A DNA stretch of 64,000 bases from Natranaerofaba carboxydovora. GTDB taxonomy: Bacteria; Bacillota; Natranaerobiia; Natranaerobiales; Natranaerofabaceae. Both the position numbers and the translations under genes were made by a program. The stretch spans positions 684,501 through 748,500 of the forward strand of contig NZ_CP054394.1 in assembly GCF_022539405.1 (NCBI RefSeq), written 5' to 3'. Below the pieces are notes generated by a model. It saw nothing but the letters and a program-made list of their open reading frames with translations. It was not told the origin of the DNA and ran no database searches. The stretch's first letter is position 1, and every line of letters begins with the position of its first letter. This document shows positions 3,323 through 21,510 of the stretch, piece by piece.

Positions 3323-3397
3323 TCCTCAGTAGCTCAACGGTAGAGCGACCGGCTGTTAACCGGTAGGTTGTAGGTTCGAATCCTACCTGAGGAGCCA
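3323..3397 (+). tRNA. tRNA-Asn (GTT)
   Basis: Acceptor TCCTCAG (3323-3329) pairs with CTGAGGA (3387-3393), followed by discriminator G and an encoded CCA. The anticodon loop is CTGTTAA, giving anticodon GTT, and the T-loop TTCGAAT is standard. First gene of a four-tRNA operon. Confidence 0.95.
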
Positions 3398-3401
3398 ATA
3401 T

Positions 3402-3477
3402 GGGCCCATAGCTCAGTTGGAAGAGCAACCGGCTCATAACCGGTTGGTCCCTGGTTCGAGCCCGGGTGGGCCCACCA
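3402..3477 (+). tRNA. tRNA-Met (CAT)
   Basis: Acceptor GGGCCCA (3402-3408) pairs with TGGGCCC (3467-3473), followed by A and an encoded CCA. Anticodon CAT. The first base pair is intact and the anticodon stem is ACCGG/CCGGT, without the three G-C pairs of an initiator, so an elongator Met is most likely. A tRNA-Ile with a modified CAT anticodon cannot be excluded by eye. Confidence 0.88.
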
Positions 3478-3488
3478 TTAAAAGCAAT

Positions 3489-3564
3489 GGCCCCTTGGTC
3501 AAGTGGTTTAAGACATCGGCCTTTCACGCCGAAGACAGGGGTTCGAATCCCCTAGGGGTCACCA
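3489..3564 (+). tRNA. tRNA-Glu (TTC), intact left copy
   Basis: Acceptor GGCCCCT (3489-3495) pairs with AGGGGTC (3554-3560) with one G-T pair. Anticodon TTC and encoded CCA. From base 3492 on, this gene lies in the 157-bp segment repeated at 21354-21510. Confidence 0.95.
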
Positions 3565-3648
3565 TTAAGTGGGCGAATAGCTCAGCTGGGAGAGCACCTG
3601 CCTTACAAGCAGGGGGTCACAGGTTCAAGTCCTGTTTCGCCCACCATT
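3492..3648 (+). repeat. 157-bp direct repeat, left copy (island boundary)
   Basis: Bases 3492-3648 read the same as 21354-21510 over all 157 positions I compared. The identity begins at the third to fourth base of tRNA-Glu, includes all of tRNA-Val and ends two bases after its CCA. A constant offset of 17,862 was checked at several landmarks. The repeat bounds the island and probably contains the attachment site, but the crossover point cannot be narrowed from this window. Confidence 0.9.
3571..3646 (+). tRNA. tRNA-Val (TAC), left copy
   Basis: Acceptor GGGCGAA (3571-3577) pairs with TTCGCCC (3636-3642), then A and CCA. Anticodon TAC. Last gene of the left tRNA cluster. An identical second copy lies at 21433-21508. 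The island begins just downstream. Confidence 0.95.
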
Positions 3649-10795: not shown

Positions 10796-10823
10796 AAAAC
10801 CCTTTTTAAAAGGGATTTTTTAG
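10796..10823 (-). terminator. Terminator of the DUF262 gene
   Basis: On the minus strand AATCCCTTTT pairs with AAAAGGGTTT, followed by T residues (plus-strand A run at 10796-10800). The hairpin overlaps the stop codon at 10806-10808. Confidence 0.6.
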
Positions 10824-12554
10824 TATTGTTTCTAACTCGTCTTTCATAAGTTTTTTTCTTTCCTTAATAAATTCATCAAAATTATCAAGACTTAAGTTAA
10901 TATCTGGGATGTAGTTTTTATTCATAAAGTCTTTTCTCTCTTGATCATTTGGATACATTTGATACAACCATTGTTTAAAATCTATATTAGACTTTTCCTG
11001 GTTTACTCCCCCTTGCAGTAGTTGTAAATTGGCAAGACAATTATAATTTTGTAAACAAAACTCTATTTTTTCTCTAGAAAAATTTCTTTTTCTTAGCTTA
11101 GCTTCAGTAAAATAACTTTTTGGGAAGATATGATCTATCTGAAAATTATTCCGATAATCGACCCATGGATATAATAGTGCTAAAGTTGAAAAAGTATACC
11201 CTGAACCATATCTAAGGAAAAACAGGTCATCTATCTCCTCGTCATTAAAAGTAATTGGTTTTATTCCTTTTAATTTATAAATTATATCTGATAAAGGAAA
11301 TTCAGCATTTTTGTTAGCAAGAACCTCTCTTAATGCTCTCAAAACGTTATCTGAGTGGCCACCAAACACCTTTTTAAGTAGTGAAATAATAAGCCAGTAG
11401 CGAATTTTTTTTCTATCTTTCATATGATTTGATGAAGTCAAGAAATTATGAGGCAAGCCTTTGCTTAACAAATAGTAAGCAATTGGAATCAAAGCATTGT
11501 TAGAAGTAAGAGTGTCTCGAGAGTATCCAAAGCCTGAAACTAAATTTACAGTTAACCTTATTGCTTCAGTGATTTCATCCCAATTGTTTTCAATTGTTAA
11601 CATATTATATGAGTTAAAATTGTCTACTTTGAATCGGATATCTCTAATATCACTTAATACTAAAGCACTTTTTAATATAAAATCTTTGTTAAAGTTAAAA
11701 CCTGCTCCAATGTTATTTATTTCATCAACAAATCTAGTTATTTCCTCTCTTGCATCTCTTTTTTCCCATTGAGCAGTTGCTATCGAAAGTAATAGGTCAG
11801 AATAGTTTAATTCAGTTCCGCCACTATTAACTCTTATAAAAATATTCAATACTTTATCTAGATCATCATCTGTCTCTAAAAAATAATTTATTATCTTATC
11901 TTTATGGATAATAGCATGTAGTTTATACAATATCTGATTGGCAAGTTTCTGGCTTTGAGCTTCAATGTCTTGGTTAAATATATTACCTATTAAGTAGTTG
12001 TTAGGCTCATGTTCTTCTTTCATATCCATAATTTCACTTACTTTAAACCAATGAAAATCTCCTGATTTTTGCTCAGCCTCCTCAGTAGTTAAAAACTTAA
12101 ACTCATAATCCATATCAGCTTCATCATTTTCTTTTAAAAGATTCAGATATAAATGTCTTTCAGGAAAAGCTTTATCATTATCCCATCTCTTTCTAGGAAG
12201 CTTGTATGAGTAACTACCTTTTAAAGCTATATATAAAGCTGTTAGGCGTTGCTGACCGTCTAATATTGCTGTAATGTCGTCTTCCCCTCCAACATCCGCT
12301 TTGGGATTTCTTCGGTTATCGCGTTCGTGATAATTTCTAACGAATTCATAAAACTGATATTCTTTTATTTGTTCTTTTCTAACTTTCCAGAATAAAAAAG
12401 AACCTATAGGGTAATCTCTCATCAAAGAATCAAACAAACGCTCTATTTGTTCTGCATCCCAGACAAATTCTCTCTGAATAGCAGGAAGCAAATATTCCTT
12501 TCTATATATCATTTGTACTGCATCCATTATCGTGATAGGAGTTTGAAAAGACAT
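10806..12554 (-). CDS. DUF262/HNH protein (GmrSD-like)
   Basis: 582 residues. The N-terminal DUF262 domain shows LLPAIQREFVWDAEQIERLF (near 17) and ILDGQQRLTALYIAL (near 95), the ParB/GmrS-like nucleotide-binding region. The C-terminal part has an HNH-type motif, FQIDHIFPKSYF, then Asn-rich NYNCLANLQLL (near 475-520). Such single-chain DUF262-DUF1524 proteins are related to GmrSD, which restrict modified phage DNA. ATG with RBS AAGGAGG. It faces away from the R-M operon across a 442-base gap. A defence role is a family-based inference. Confidence 0.82.
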   Translation of the reverse strand: MSFQTPITIMDAVQMIYRKEYLLPAIQREFVWDAEQIERLFDSLMRDYPIGSFLFWKVRKEQIKEYQFYEFVRNYHERDNRRNPKADVGGEDDITAILDGQQRLTALYIALKGSYSYKLPRKRWDNDKAFPERHLYLNLLKENDEADMDYEFKFLTTEEAEQKSGDFHWFKVSEIMDMKEEHEPNNYLIGNIFNQDIEAQSQKLANQILYKLHAIIHKDKIINYFLETDDDLDKVLNIFIRVNSGGTELNYSDLLLSIATAQWEKRDAREEITRFVDEINNIGAGFNFNKDFILKSALVLSDIRDIRFKVDNFNSYNMLTIENNWDEITEAIRLTVNLVSGFGYSRDTLTSNNALIPIAYYLLSKGLPHNFLTSSNHMKDRKKIRYWLIISLLKKVFGGHSDNVLRALREVLANKNAEFPLSDIIYKLKGIKPITFNDEEIDDLFFLRYGSGYTFSTLALLYPWVDYRNNFQIDHIFPKSYFTEAKLRKRNFSREKIEFCLQNYNCLANLQLLQGGVNQEKSNIDFKQWLYQMYPNDQERKDFMNKNYIPDINLSLDNFDEFIKERKKLMKDELETILKNPF

Positions 12555-12996
12555 AAATAATTAACCTCCTTCTGATCAAATAGGCAATAAAAATATTTTT
12601 TTGTTTAAAGAAATGAACAAATCTTCTTTTTACAAAAAGAATTAGCCCTCATATGTTGTTTTATTTCGACTTTTAGCAAATAATTCCTTCTATTACTCAA
12701 ATAATTTAAAAGAAATGTAAGATCTATCATAAATTGTGATAATTTTATATCAAACCCTTCATTTAAAGGACTTTAAGTAAGTTTTTTCGGAGGGGTGAGT
12801 TTAGTAAAGGAATATACTTTTTCCTGTCGAATCAGTAAATGAGAACTTAAGCAAACGTGCTAATCAGAATGTTTTTTTAGATTGTTGAACGATAACTAAT
12901 ATGAAATAAAACAAGTAGTATATTATTTCTTTGTTGATATTTGAATAAGTTAAAAAGAAGAATTTATCAAATGTTTTTATAAAGGAGGTAAGCGTA
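12555..12996. other. Divergent intergenic region
   Basis: 442 AT-rich bases between the divergent DUF262 gene and the R-M operon, so both promoters should lie here. TTCTTTTT/AAAAAGAA near 12630-12645 makes a small hairpin. No clear -35/-10 pair and no controller-protein gene recognised. The right end has the R-M operon RBS (AAAGGAGG, near 12980). Confidence 0.5.
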
Positions 12997-14481
12997 TTGG
13001 ATGATTTAACGACTTTAAAGGTTCTTTTTAAAGACGCTGGTGTACACCATAGGAGTTCATTACTAGCAGAAGCTATACATACTATAGAAAGATATTTAGA
13101 TATTGACGAAGATTATTTAAGAAGTATAGTATGGGTAGACAAAGATGGAAATAGAGTACAAATGATATCTAACAATCAGATTGAAAATATAATTACTAAG
13201 CGAGACATAAATCTTAAAGACGTTGATCCTAAAAACGAAAGAATAGAGAAAATAAAAAAAATCGCTACTCAATATGTTCATGTTCCAATTATTAAAGATA
13301 TAAATAAATATTTTATTCCATCGAGAAAGGCAAATAAGTTAGCAGTAGATTTAGGTTGTATAGATAATATTAATAAAATAGAAAAATATGACTCGTTCAA
13401 TCAACTAAATAAAGTTGAAAAAGATGAACTGCTCTCATTCTATAACAAAAATGACATAACAAATATCCAGTCTTTAAAACAACTTACTAAAAGAAGCCAA
13501 ACTATTGTTGATACAATAAAGACTTTATGTCTATTTAATAATTACAGTATTAATGATGAGTCAAGTTTGAAAAAAAACTTTTTATTAAACTGGTACAATC
13601 TTAAGCTTAATCCTTCATTAGTTAAAGACATTATTTTAAATAATATACCAGATCTCAGTAGTGAAATAAGTGAAATGATAACTAATAAAATAACTGCAAT
13701 ATTTCAACTGTTGAATTTAGATCCAGTATATTTCGATATAGCATTAGCTTACCTGGAAGAGATTGCTAAAATAAAAAAAGATGTTCCTCAAATGGCTCAT
13801 CAAGCAATAAAAACTGGGAATCCATTTCTCTTTAGGTCACTCTTTTTAAGTTATGATGAAGCGAAAGAGTTTGCACTTGGAGGGAAATTAAATAGTAGCT
13901 TAGAAACAAAGTATGGCAATCTTTTTGAAAAGCTTATAGCAAGTTTTAATGCGTGTCGAGTAATAAAAGAAGGCGGAATTGATGTAGCTGTAAAAGGAGA
14001 AGTGTTTGATATAAAAAGCGGGCCAAATGTAATGAATAAGAGTCAAGTTGACGCTTTTTCCGCTAAAAAATATTTAATTGAAAAAGAGAACTTACTACCT
14101 GAATTTAATGAATATAAAGTTGCTATTGGGTATGGAAAGCCTGAACAACTTAACTCTTTTATGTCAACAATAGAAAAAGAAATTTTCACTGGTAGAAAAG
14201 CGTGGGAAAAGCTGACAGGGAAAAATTATAGTCCAGAGATTGCTTTTGAGATTGCTTGTTTTGTTGCCAAAATTTTTGGTAGAAAAAGTCTTATTTCTTC
14301 TATGTTAGGTAGAGAAGATAATGAGATTCAAAGTAATAAATTAAACTTGTTAAAAGAAGATCGACTTTTCAAAGATATGTTTGATGGCTTATTTACTGAG
14401 GCAAAGTTATCAAACGAAGCAAGAAACGAACTAAATAACATAAGGTCACTAATTGACCAGACTGAATCTAAGTTTTACTAA
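12997..14481 (+). CDS. Putative type II restriction endonuclease, larger protein
   Basis: 494 residues from a TTG after AAAGGAGG. The N-terminal half is helical and unrecognised. The C-terminal half has a nuclease-like core: LETKYGNLFEKLIASFN, GGIDVAVKGEVFDIKSGPNVMN (D, then D-x-K) and VAIGYGKPEQLN near 345-400. The KSGPN-x-MN block and flanking pattern recur in the protein encoded 1.4 kb downstream, so the two are probably homologous. Adjacent to a cytosine-5 methyltransferase, it is likely a restriction subunit; I recall the motif from PmeII-type annotations but cannot confirm that family. Confidence 0.72.
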   Translation: MDDLTTLKVLFKDAGVHHRSSLLAEAIHTIERYLDIDEDYLRSIVWVDKDGNRVQMISNNQIENIITKRDINLKDVDPKNERIEKIKKIATQYVHVPIIKDINKYFIPSRKANKLAVDLGCIDNINKIEKYDSFNQLNKVEKDELLSFYNKNDITNIQSLKQLTKRSQTIVDTIKTLCLFNNYSINDESSLKKNFLLNWYNLKLNPSLVKDIILNNIPDLSSEISEMITNKITAIFQLLNLDPVYFDIALAYLEEIAKIKKDVPQMAHQAIKTGNPFLFRSLFLSYDEAKEFALGGKLNSSLETKYGNLFEKLIASFNACRVIKEGGIDVAVKGEVFDIKSGPNVMNKSQVDAFSAKKYLIEKENLLPEFNEYKVAIGYGKPEQLNSFMSTIEKEIFTGRKAWEKLTGKNYSPEIAFEIACFVAKIFGRKSLISSMLGREDNEIQSNKLNLLKEDRLFKDMFDGLFTEAKLSNEARNELNNIRSLIDQTESKFY

Positions 14482-14509
14482 TAAAATTATAAATACTGGA
14501 GGAGTTTTC

Positions 14510-15778
14510 ATGGATAATTATAATACAATATCTCTTTTTTCAGGTGCAATGGGCTTAGATATAGGTTTAGAGCAAGCTGGGTTTGATATAAAAGTTTGTA
14601 TTGAAGTGGATAAAGTAGCTTGTGAAACAATCAATAAGAATACAAATATTCCTGTTATAAATGATGATATATATAATATTACTTCGGATGAAATTCTTAA
14701 TGAAGGAAGATTGAAAAAAGATGAAGTCTTTCTTATAGCAGGTGGCCCACCGTGTCAAGCGTTTAGTACTGCTGGAGAAAGAAGAGGGTTTAGTGATATT
14801 AGAGGTAATGTTATATTAAATTTTTTAAGAATTATTAAAGAGATAAAACCTAAGTTTTTTATTATGGAAAATGTTAGAGGATTACTTTCTACCAAAATAT
14901 ATACACTACCAGAAGAGTACATAGATGAATACAAGGATATTTTAAAAATAAAAGGTGGTATTGTGTATTTTCTTTACAATGAATTAAAGAAATATGGTTA
15001 TACGATAAGTTTTTCGCTTTTTAATAGTGCAAATTATGGTGTTCCACAAAAAAGAGAGCGAATCATAATGTTTGGTAATTTAGGCGAGAAAAGAATACCA
15101 TTACCTAGTCCAACCCATTCTGAAGATGGTATACTTGGACAACCTTGGACAACTTTTGGACAAGTTACAAAAGACTTAAAAGAAGAAGATCTGAATTATT
15201 TAGAACTTGCTGATAAACATAAAAAGTATTTAAACTTACTAACAGAAGGGCAAAACTGGAAGGATTTGCCTAATGATATTAAAGAAAAAGCCATGGGGAA
15301 GTCTTTTAAGCTAGGTGGAGGAAAGACGGGATTTTATAGAAGAATATCTTATGATAAGCCTGCTCCTACCCTTGTTACTAGTCCAACAATGCCGGCTACC
15401 ATGTTAGTGCATCCTGAAAAATTAAGACCATTAGCTATAGAAGAATATCGCAGGCTGCAACAATTTCCTGACAATTGGGAGTTTGCTGGACATATAAGAG
15501 AACAGTATAAACAAATAGGAAATGCTGTCCCTATTGGTATGGGATATGTGGCAGGAAAGACTATACTAGACTTTTATAAAGGGGATTATAATCCTGAAAG
15601 AGAAAAAAACAATAGTATACCATACTCGAGGTACAAGAACTGTTCAGATTTTGAATTCATACCTGAATTTTATAAAAAAGTGCAAAAAGAAAAGGAAATG
15701 TTTGGAAATAAGAACTTAGATAATATTAGTGATTCTGCTAATGGGTTTGAACAACTTGCACTATTTAAATCGAATTAA
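14510..15778 (+). CDS. DNA (cytosine-5-)-methyltransferase
   Basis: 422 residues. The start is the ATG at 14510 behind GGAGGAG; a longer frame runs upstream into the endonuclease gene. Motif I SLFSGAMGLDIGLEQAGF (AdoMet), motif IV GGPPCQAFSTAGERRG with the catalytic Cys, motif VI MENVRGLLS, motif VIII VPQKRERIIMFG, target-recognition region about 210-300, motif IX/X RPLAIEEYRRLQQFP and QIGNAVPIGMGY. All catalytic motifs are intact. Methylates the cytosine of the cognate site to protect it from the flanking endonucleases; specificity cannot be read from sequence. Confidence 0.96.
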   Translation: MDNYNTISLFSGAMGLDIGLEQAGFDIKVCIEVDKVACETINKNTNIPVINDDIYNITSDEILNEGRLKKDEVFLIAGGPPCQAFSTAGERRGFSDIRGNVILNFLRIIKEIKPKFFIMENVRGLLSTKIYTLPEEYIDEYKDILKIKGGIVYFLYNELKKYGYTISFSLFNSANYGVPQKRERIIMFGNLGEKRIPLPSPTHSEDGILGQPWTTFGQVTKDLKEEDLNYLELADKHKKYLNLLTEGQNWKDLPNDIKEKAMGKSFKLGGGKTGFYRRISYDKPAPTLVTSPTMPATMLVHPEKLRPLAIEEYRRLQQFPDNWEFAGHIREQYKQIGNAVPIGMGYVAGKTILDFYKGDYNPEREKNNSIPYSRYKNCSDFEFIPEFYKKVQKEKEMFGNKNLDNISDSANGFEQLALFKSN

Positions 15779-15851
15779 GTCTTTTTGTGGAAGGTAAAAT
15801 GAGTAGTGATTGTTGCTTCTATTAATGGTTAATATTTAAGGAGGGAAGCAC

Positions 15852-16781
15852 ATGAGAGACATTGAGGTAGACTTTTTAGGGGAAGTTATAAAAGAAGGAA
15901 TTAAAGGTGTAGGAAAGCACACTTTTAATAAGGTTACCACTTTGAGAGAAACCTTTGAAGATTTTAGCACTATTACAAAGGAAGAGTTAATAGAATTAGG
16001 AATTAAAGAAGAAATAGCAATAAATATTTTTGAAAAAATCAACGAGTTAGATTTTAAAAAAACGGTTGAGGTTTTGTTTACCGAATATATAATAAAAGAT
16101 TTTCTAAATAAAAGCTATGAAAAAATCAATGAATTAGATTTGAATGATTTAGACATAAATATTTTTTTAATTAAAGCATTAGCTTTTTCTAAAGCTGAAG
16201 AAGTGATAGAATTTTACATACATCAACGAATTACGAGATCGGTGGTTACGAGTTGGGGAATTTGTTTAGAAAAAATATGTGTATTTTCAGGGGCTAAAAA
16301 GATACCTGAAAATGAGAATGTAGAAGATCAAGGAGAAAAATTTGATATTAAAAAGTCGTATGATGATATTGACTATTATATACAATTGAAATCTGGGCCA
16401 AATACTATGAATGTTCAAATGGTTAAAGCTTTAAATAGAATGATTGAAAAAATTGAGCAAAAAAATGATAATGTAAAAGCTATTTTAGGTATGACATACG
16501 GAAAAAATTCGGCTATCTCAGGTCAAATTAAAAAATACTTAGAAGATTTTGATGACAGAGCTTATATTGGTAAAGAGTTTTGGAATTTAATAAGTGGGAA
16601 AGAAAACTTCTATTCAGAGCTTTTTGAAATAATTGATAAACTATCTTATGAAGTCAAAGATTATACCTTCTTTGAGTTAGTAGAGAAAAAGAAAAAGGAT
16701 TTAGAAGAAGAATGGAGAGATAAATATGGAAACTTAGGGGAAAAGGGTTTCAAAGAATTTATTAACACCTATCTTGAATAG
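15852..16781 (+). CDS. Putative type II restriction endonuclease, smaller protein
   Basis: 309 residues, ATG with RBS AAGGAGGG. The central core TSWGICLEKICVFSGAKKI, EKFDIKKSYDDIDYYIQLKSGPN (acidic residues, then Q-x-K) and ILGMTYGKNSAIS, followed by AYIGKEFWNLISGKENF, parallels the larger upstream protein. Together they suggest two subunits, or two endonucleases, around one methyltransferase. TSWG plus KSGPN occurs in several type II endonucleases annotated as PmeII-like, from memory. The 73-base gap to the methyltransferase suggests cotranscription. Confidence 0.72.
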   Translation: MRDIEVDFLGEVIKEGIKGVGKHTFNKVTTLRETFEDFSTITKEELIELGIKEEIAINIFEKINELDFKKTVEVLFTEYIIKDFLNKSYEKINELDLNDLDINIFLIKALAFSKAEEVIEFYIHQRITRSVVTSWGICLEKICVFSGAKKIPENENVEDQGEKFDIKKSYDDIDYYIQLKSGPNTMNVQMVKALNRMIEKIEQKNDNVKAILGMTYGKNSAISGQIKKYLEDFDDRAYIGKEFWNLISGKENFYSELFEIIDKLSYEVKDYTFFELVEKKKKDLEEEWRDKYGNLGEKGFKEFINTYLE

Positions 16782-16887: not shown

Positions 16888-17597
16888 TTGCGAGGTGAAC
16901 CAATGGGTTATAAACTGTATGATTTAGAAGATAATGAAGTTACGGGTGAAAATGAAAAGCTCCAAGAGAAATCAATTTGGCATGATAAAGGTAACGAGAA
17001 AGAAAAAGTATTTGTAAAAAAATATGGGAAAGAGCTTAAAGTTAGGATGAACCCACAAAAGGTTACAGACCCTACTGTACCAGATCTTGAACAAAATAAG
17101 GTTGATTATACCATCTTAGCTGATTTAAAATGTCAAAACACACCTATTTTTAGAGCAAAAAAATATTATGGAATAGATGACCCAACTTATGCAGTGACTT
17201 TTAATTTAAAGGACGCATTTAATTATGGTTCTTATGGAAATAATTATACTAACTTGAAATCTATTTCTGGGTGCATTGGGTTGCTGTGAAAATGGAAACT
17301 GAGTTTAATAGTATAACTTATACATATTCAGTAAAACCACTACAAGGTGTTTGGGAAGTAGACTATTCATGGATTGAGAGTGAACGGCATAACCTAAATA
17401 TTCATTGGTATAATCAACGCGACCCTAAATGGATCGACATTAATAGTCCGGAAGGGAGAAAATTAGTTGAATTTGAACCGAGGCTTAAGCAGAAGAATAG
17501 TAATAAAGTATATTCGATAAAGGATAATCGTGGTAACGCTACTTGTAGTTATGTGTTAGATTTAAGAAAATTAAACGAAGTTATTAGGGAACTGTAA
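16888..17597 (+). pseudogene. Frameshifted gene, function unknown
   Basis: Two overlapping frames form one interrupted gene. 16888-17289 (RBS GAGGTG before the ATG at 16903) ends after NLKSISGCIGLL, and the other frame, open from 17253, continues IYFWVHWVAVKMETEFNS to 17597. A single-base loss near 17258-17262 would join them into about 230 residues. Hydrophilic, no motif recognised, no signal peptide. No slippery heptamer was seen, so mutation or sequencing error is more likely than programmed shifting. Confidence 0.6.
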
Positions 17598-21350: not shown

Positions 21351-21426
21351 TAACCCTTGGTCAAGTGGTTTAAGACATCGGCCTTTCACGCCGAAGACAG
21401 GGGTTCGAATCCCCTAGGGGTCACCA
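21351..21426 (+). pseudogene. tRNA-Glu (TTC) copy with damaged acceptor stem
   Basis: Identical to the left tRNA-Glu from its fourth base, but the first three bases are TAA instead of GGC. Against the 3' strand AGGGGTC, acceptor positions 1 and 3 are mismatched, leaving a broken terminal stem. Probably non-functional, or at best poorly processed. Confidence 0.75.
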
Positions 21427-21510
21427 TTAAGTGGGCGAATAGCTCAGCTGGGAGAGCACCTGCCTTACAAGCAGGGGGTCACAGGTTCAAGTCCTGTTTC
21501 GCCCACCATT
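21354..21510 (+). repeat. 157-bp direct repeat, right copy (island boundary)
   Basis: Same 157 bases as 3492-3648. The flanks differ immediately on both sides (TAA before versus GGC; TAATAC after versus ACTATC). Confidence 0.9.
21433..21508 (+). tRNA. tRNA-Val (TAC), right copy
   Basis: Complete and identical to 3571-3646, with an encoded CCA. It can be transcribed from the promoter at 21270-21298 and is followed by the terminator at 21524-21551, so it is plausibly functional. Confidence 0.93.

What the first reader, a model, noticed from the sequence alone, without database searches (positions are those of the whole stretch)
12997..16781. Two related endonuclease-like proteins around one cytosine-5 methyltransferase
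The 494- and 309-residue proteins share a KSGPN-x-MN block, a preceding acidic strand and a following GYGK/TYGK strand, yet differ in length and N-terminal part. One methyltransferase lies between. They could be a heterodimeric nuclease for an asymmetric site, or a specificity subunit plus a cleavage subunit. I do not recognise this arrangement as a standard type II system.
Basis: partly seen in the sequence, partly recalled or inferred. Interest (0 to 1): 0.66.

Follow-up and report, generated by a model that had tools for sequence, protein, structure and literature searches.

The report
Two restriction enzymes sharing one methyltransferase
A bacterial DNA-defence locus carries two distantly related DNA-cutting enzymes of the EcoO109I family with only one protective DNA-marking enzyme between them, probably one "key" that guards against two "locks".

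Summary
LONG (494 aa) and SHORT (309 aa) flank one m5C methyltransferase, and both carry the EcoO109I nuclease domain (PF14511; profile-profile probability 99%). Both keep a complete active site: LONG E311-D329-D338xK340, SHORT E140-D165-Q178xK180, the latter as in AvaII. So neither looks like a non-catalytic specificity subunit.

The heterodimer reading is not supported. LONG and SHORT are no recent duplication: they fall in different parts of the family tree, and each occurs elsewhere without the other. LONG's only full-length relative found, in the cyanobacterium Trichocoleus, is fused to its own m5C methyltransferase, with no SHORT in that genome. SHORT's relatives in Halanaerobacter, Natroniella, Omnitrophica and a proteobacterium sit beside one methyltransferase, without LONG. 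None of 34 distinct family loci outside the window holds two nucleases.

The window methyltransferase groups with those of SHORT-type systems, not with LONG's fused one, and is the only m5C methyltransferase in the complete 3.26-Mb genome.

Best reading: a composite Type II system in which one methyltransferase protects against two independently derived EcoO109I-family nucleases of the same or nested GGNCC-like specificity. That is inferred; recognition sites are unknown and site avoidance gave no support. New variant of a known kind.

The parts
12982..12989 (+). ribosome-binding site AAGGAGGT of LONG
   Evidence: sequence
12997..14481 (+). LONG: 494-aa EcoO109I-family restriction endonuclease with a unique ~240-270-residue N-terminal part; TTG start
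   Evidence: PF14511 E 2.3e-8 at residues 269-409; full-length relative in L032, 45% identity with a matching N-terminus
12997..13716 (+). N-terminal part of LONG (residues 1-240), predicted mostly helical, no Pfam family; role unknown (DNA recognition or dimerisation is a guess)
   Evidence: no family over cut-off; helical but low-confidence model
13714..14307 (+). nuclease core of LONG (residues 240-437); active-site residues E311, D329, D338, K340
   Evidence: EcoO109I Z 9.8, rmsd 4.2, 161 aligned; residue table
14510..15778 (+). m5C DNA methyltransferase (422 aa from ATG 14510; longest ORF begins TTG 14453); ribosome-binding site GGAGG at 14498-14502
   Evidence: PF00145 1e-64; only PF00145 match in the genome
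15838..15845 (+). ribosome-binding site AAGGAGGG of SHORT
   Evidence: sequence
15852..16781 (+). SHORT: 309-aa EcoO109I-family restriction endonuclease
   Evidence: PF14511 1e-22 and PF09520 RE_TdeIII 1.3e-8; model pLDDT 92.5; EcoO109I Z 15.9 over 235 residues
15852..16046 (+). helix-hairpin-helix domain of SHORT (residues 1-65)
   Evidence: UvrC C-terminal half Z 7.8, rmsd 1.9, 60 aligned at residues 2-63; HHH Pfam hits below cut-off in the relative L048
16269..16391 (+). active site of SHORT: E140, D165, Q178-x-K180
   Evidence: the same residue types and spacing as AvaII E123, D147, Q161, K163 (PMC7337904)

Best explanation
This is a composite Type II restriction-modification locus: a SHORT-type EcoO109I-like R-M unit (SHORT plus the m5C methyltransferase) that also holds a second nuclease, LONG, from a different lineage of the same family. 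Each nuclease most likely acts as its own homodimer and cuts unmethylated DNA. The single methyltransferase protects the host from both, which requires that both recognise the same sequence or nested versions of one GGNCC-like sequence (family precedents: EcoO109I RGGNCCY, AvaII GGWCC). Shown here: the genes, the shared nuclease domain, both active sites, the separate ancestries, the independence of each nuclease from the other in other genomes, and the absence of another m5C methyltransferase. Inferred: activity of both, homodimers, and shared or nested specificity.
For: Both are PF14511 members, homologous at 99% probability. The family profile finds EcoO109I (1wtd/1wte, 2.9e-12). The SHORT model (pLDDT 92.5) matches EcoO109I at Z 15.9 and AvaII at Z 5.6; the LONG model matches EcoO109I (Foldseek 1.8e-4; Z 9.8). 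Active sites are complete. LONG's relative in Trichocoleus L032 840-3533 is fused behind an m5C methyltransferase (PF00145 residues 9-370, PF14511 residues 684-823), and that genome has one family member. SHORT relatives L034, L042, L043 and L048 each adjoin one m5C methyltransferase, without LONG; 13 of 14 genomes searched have a single family member, and the 14th has one more, a fragment. Of 34 distinct family loci, 18 have a recognisable m5C methyltransferase and 0 a second nuclease. The window methyltransferase groups with L034 (100/98) and L043 (94/91), partners of SHORT-type nucleases; a clade with LONG's fused partner is rejected (AU p 5e-5). It is the only PF00145 in the single-contig genome, and no remnant of a second one lies in the window.
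Against: No recognition site could be shown. GGNCC is only weakly under-represented (1386 found, 1528 expected, ratio 0.91, rank 117 of 401 patterns) and RGGNCCY not at all (0.97). LONG's model is of low confidence (pLDDT 57). LONG's independence rests on a single relative. Nothing shows that either nuclease is active. Within the SHORT clade the nuclease and methyltransferase trees disagree (SHORT goes with L042/L048, 98/99; the methyltransferase goes with L034), so partner swaps happen and cognate pairs cannot be read from trees alone.
Confidence: 0.6

Rival explanations
1. LONG and SHORT form an obligate or preferred heteromer, either BbvCI-like (two catalytic subunits, quasi-palindromic site such as GGWCC read asymmetrically) or BslI-like (alpha2-beta2 on a palindrome), with one methyltransferase.
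For: Three adjacent co-directional genes with strong ribosome-binding sites and gaps of 28 and 73 bases; both nucleases homologous with full active sites. One methyltransferase can protect quasi-palindromic sites, and BslI is an alpha2-beta2 enzyme for a palindrome (PMC4081073, passages).
Against: Relatives of each are found without the other. The pair is not a duplication. Known family members with structures are dimers of one chain (PMC7337904, passages).
Confidence: 0.14
2. Only SHORT is the working nuclease; LONG is a bystander, silenced, or decaying after capture, and its site is not protected.
For: LONG is rare (one full-length relative found); its native partner appears to be a different methyltransferase lineage; it starts with TTG.
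Against: LONG is an intact 494-codon frame with a strong ribosome-binding site, all active-site residues, and 45% identity to its relative along the full length.
Confidence: 0.17
3. Division of labour: LONG and SHORT have different specificities and one of them is guarded by a non-m5C methyltransferase elsewhere in the genome.
For: Two PF02384 N6-methyltransferase genes exist far away.
Against: All 18 methyltransferases recognised beside family nucleases are m5C (which searched only with an m5C query); PF01555 gives no match over its cut-off and PF02086 none. The remaining 16 of 34 loci had no methyltransferase recognised by that query and were not examined further.
Confidence: 0.07

Closest known systems
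EcoO109I (RGGNCCY; PDB 1wtd/1wte) and its Pfam family PF14511
   Same: same nuclease domain in both LONG and SHORT; SHORT aligns along 235 residues (Z 15.9); partner is an m5C methyltransferase in 18 of 34 loci
   Different: one nuclease per locus elsewhere; here two. SHORT adds an N-terminal helix-hairpin-helix domain, LONG a ~240-270-residue helical part
AvaII (GGWCC)
   Same: SHORT has the same residue types in its active site: helix Glu, Asp, Gln-x-Lys
   Different: only weak structural match (Z 5.6)
LlaJI (GACGC/GCGTC)
   Same: an R-M operon with m5C methylation and two restriction genes (PMC1459862, abstract)
   Different: LlaJI has two methyltransferases, a McrB-like GTPase subunit without catalytic centre, and one PD-(D/E)XK subunit; here there is one methyltransferase and both proteins are catalytic members of one family
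Type IIT heterodimers (BbvCI, Bpu10I) and BslI (alpha2-beta2)
   Same: two different restriction proteins in one system (PMC4081073, passages)
   Different: Type IIT sites are asymmetric; LONG and SHORT relatives occur singly
Type IIC fused enzymes (compare the Trichocoleus relative of LONG, L032)
   Same: modification and cleavage in one chain
   Different: the review names gamma-class methyltransferases with an N-terminal nuclease as the usual plan (PMC4081073, passages); L032 has an N-terminal m5C methyltransferase followed by an EcoO109I-type nuclease

Membership tests
EcoO109I family PF14511 (LONG) | score over Pfam's curated cut-off | tested here: met
   34.5 bits against 22.5
EcoO109I family PF14511 (SHORT) | score over Pfam's curated cut-off | tested here: met
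   81.3 bits against 22.5
EcoO109I family PF14511 | PD-(D/E)XK-type active site (helix acid, D, x-x-K) | tested here: met
   LONG E311/D329/D338/K340, SHORT E140/D165/Q178/K180; D and K invariant in 35 of 35 rows (one of 36 members was left out because the motif search missed it)
EcoO109I family PF14511 | EcoO109I fold | tested here: met
   SHORT Z 15.9; LONG Z 9.8 over 161 residues from a low-confidence model
EcoO109I family PF14511 | recognition of a GGNCC-type sequence | tested here: inconclusive
   site avoidance weak or absent
Type IIP R-M system | one nuclease and cognate methyltransferase for a palindrome | tested here: inconclusive
   one methyltransferase but two nucleases; the site is unknown
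Type IIT / heterodimeric R-M system | two different subunits that act together | tested here: inconclusive
   comparative evidence against obligate pairing; no biochemistry
Type IIT / heterodimeric R-M system | asymmetric recognition sequence | not testable with these tools
   needs cleavage or methylome data
LlaJI-type | non-catalytic McrB-like specificity subunit | tested here: not met
   neither protein matches a GTPase family in Pfam and both have an active site
LlaJI-type | two m5C methyltransferases | tested here: not met
   one PF00145 in the whole genome

The most novel reading that the evidence does not exclude
A natural 'one key, two locks' R-M module: a single m5C methyltransferase protects against two active nucleases of separate ancestry with nested specificities (one wider, one narrower). 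LONG was captured from a methyltransferase-nuclease fusion lineage, after which its own methyltransferase was lost because the resident one covered its sites. Losing the module would expose the cell to two nucleases at once.
Probability: 0.33. Interest if true: 0.6.

Novelty: new variant of a known kind. Interest (0 to 1): 0.42.

Why it matters
R-M systems are usually described as pairs in which each nuclease has its own methyltransferase. A locus where one methyltransferase serves two nucleases of separate descent would show how such modules recombine, how a nuclease can change partners without killing its host, and how specificity nests within one enzyme family. The Trichocoleus relative also suggests an m5C methyltransferase-EcoO109I-type fusion, an architecture that the 2014 Type II review passages I read do not list. 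The practical side is two possible new enzymes from the GGNCC-type family, one with a large unclassified N-terminal part.

Tried and rejected
Recent duplication of one gene into two subunits: rejected by the tree (LONG with L032 at 100/99; SHORT in an 8-row clade at 98/98; the tool warns that long branches meet near LONG).

LONG as a non-catalytic specificity subunit: rejected as unlikely, active-site residues complete.

A decayed second methyltransferase in the window: none found by tblastn with three methyltransferases.

Reading the recognition site from avoided palindromes in 1.264 Mb of the genome: gave nothing for GGNCC-type sites.

More relatives of LONG: none in plasmids or phages by tblastn, none in the first genome-contig scan, none in viral contigs (one search gave only a family member, L031), none further in 398 genomes of the same phylum by PF14511 or 397 by an alignment (largely the same genomes). 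One full-length relative came from the second genome-contig scan, and 386 genomes of Trichocoleus's phylum gave only that one again plus a match to the nuclease core (L076, not pursued). These scans depend on short patterns and can miss relatives. SHORT alone gave no match in plasmids, phages or viral contigs.

Fold of LONG's N-terminal part: the model is too weak to call; Foldseek and VIA-align matches cover the nuclease core only.

Prior descriptions: full-text searches for two nucleases with one methyltransferase, for methyltransferase-nuclease fusions and for Trichocoleus restriction enzymes showed no description of this arrangement; only open-licence papers were searched and REBASE was not available.

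Full report
THE OBSERVATION. Three co-directional genes lie at 12997-16781: LONG (494 aa, TTG start), an m5C methyltransferase and SHORT (309 aa). The methyltransferase most likely starts at ATG 14510, 28 bases after LONG's stop; SHORT starts 73 bases after the methyltransferase. All three have strong ribosome-binding sites. LONG and SHORT align at 30% identity over 166 columns (E 3e-10), far above shuffled controls (47.0 bits against a maximum of 23.9 in 100 shuffles), and at 99% probability by profile-profile comparison.

WHAT THEY ARE. Both match Pfam PF14511, EcoO109I, over its cut-off; SHORT also matches PF09520, TdeIII. NCBIfam and PADLOC do not recognise LONG; PADLOC gives SHORT a weak Type II nuclease hit (3.3e-6). 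A family profile finds EcoO109I among solved structures (2.9e-12). SHORT's model is confident (pLDDT 92.5) and matches EcoO109I over residues 70-309 (Z 15.9, rmsd 4.0, 235 aligned) and, weakly, AvaII (Z 5.6); its first 65 residues match helix-hairpin-helix domains such as UvrC's (Z 7.8, rmsd 1.9, 60 aligned). LONG's model is weak (pLDDT 57), but residues 240-437 match EcoO109I (Z 9.8, rmsd 4.2, 161 aligned; Foldseek 1.8e-4). LONG's N-terminal part matches no Pfam family over its cut-off.

ACTIVE SITES. Over 35 aligned family members the Asp and Lys are invariant, and the helix residue is Glu in 31 and Gln in 4. The residue two before the Lys varies: A 16, Q 10, S 5, D 2, N 2. LONG and its relative L032 are the two with the textbook Asp; SHORT has Gln. 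Gln at that place is catalytic in AvaII, where Q161 holds the metal with D147, K163 nearby and E123 on the helix (PMC7337904, section 21 read). Both window proteins therefore look catalytic.

ANCESTRY. I gathered 36 loci with a family member outside the window (8, 1, 27); two pairs are the same locus (L037 = L014, L039 = L017), leaving 34. Of these, 18 have a methyltransferase related to the window's and 0 have a second nuclease; several are cut by contig ends. Of 14 genomes searched whole, 13 have one family member; the 14th, Natroniella, has a second, truncated one. LONG's only full-length relative found is in Trichocoleus sp. FACHB-40: one 897-aa frame with the m5C methyltransferase first and the LONG-like nuclease after it, 45% identical to LONG over the full length. 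SHORT's nearest are in Halanaerobacter and Natroniella, then Magasanikbacteria, Omnitrophica and a proteobacterium, the whole ones each beside one methyltransferase (the Magasanikbacteria locus L033 is cut by the contig end and shows none). In the nuclease tree LONG+L032 and the SHORT clade are well separated (100/99 and 98/98), with a long-branch warning at LONG.

THE METHYLTRANSFERASE. It is closest to that of Omnitrophica L034 (56% identity; support 100/98) and then L043 (94/91), both partners of SHORT-type nucleases. A clade with LONG's fused methyltransferase is rejected (AU p 5e-5). SHORT's closest nucleases, L042 and L048, have a different methyltransferase (about 30% identity), so partners have been exchanged within this clade. 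The window enzyme is the only PF00145 gene of the complete single-contig genome. Two PF02384 genes exist elsewhere; PF01555 has no match over its cut-off and PF02086 none.

MECHANISM. If both nucleases are active, the host can survive only if the one m5C methyltransferase blocks both, so their sites should be equal or nested. Family precedents are EcoO109I RGGNCCY and AvaII GGWCC (PMC7337904, passages). Steps shown: genes, folds, active sites, separate ancestry, single methyltransferase. Steps inferred: activity, homodimers, common site. Genome-wide counts do not help: GGNCC 0.91 and RGGNCCY 0.97 of expectation. The three genes share a low G+C (0.290, 0.318, 0.275 against a median of 0.369 for 488 long ORFs, 5th percentile 0.303), which suggests, without proving, a common horizontal origin; the neighbouring helicase gene is equally low (0.293).

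AGAINST THE HETERODIMER. LlaJI is the known m5C system with a specificity and a cleavage subunit, but it has two methyltransferases and a McrB-like subunit without a catalytic centre (PMC1459862, abstract); neither feature is met here. BslI and Type IIT enzymes show that two-subunit nucleases exist (PMC4081073, passages), and one methyltransferase can guard quasi-palindromic sites (same paper), so a heteromer stays possible. The independent occurrence of each protein makes it the less likely reading.

VERDICT. Recognition sites and activity remain to be tested.

Noticed in passing
window 10806-12554 (-): A GmrSD-like protein matching PADLOC HEC-05 (1.5e-234), next to the R-M locus: probably a small defence island.
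   Followed up: no
window 16888-17289 and 17271-17597 (+): Two overlapping ORFs in different frames, perhaps one gene broken by a frameshift; the first holds a PD...DLK-like stretch and has 36-38% identical hits in 4 Pseudomonas megaplasmids (hypothetical proteins where annotated), none in phages.
   Followed up: partly
L032 840-3533: An 897-aa fusion of an m5C methyltransferase and an EcoO109I-type nuclease in Trichocoleus sp. FACHB-40.
   Followed up: yes
own genome, 1.264 Mb sampled including the window: GATC is strongly under-represented (2876 found, 4236 expected, ratio 0.68) although no PF02086 methyltransferase was found; unexplained.
   Followed up: partly
window 3323-3646 and 21352-21508: tRNA-Glu(ttc) and tRNA-Val(tac) occur as neighbours twice, on both sides of the stretch that holds the transposase-like genes, HEC-05 and the R-M locus.
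   Followed up: no
RE and methyltransferase trees of L034, L042, L043, L048: SHORT-clade nucleases pair with two very different m5C methyltransferases (about 30% identity), a sign of partner exchange.
   Followed up: partly
L074 1546-1797: Natroniella carries, next to recombinase/integrase-like genes, a truncated second copy of a SHORT-type nuclease.
   Followed up: no
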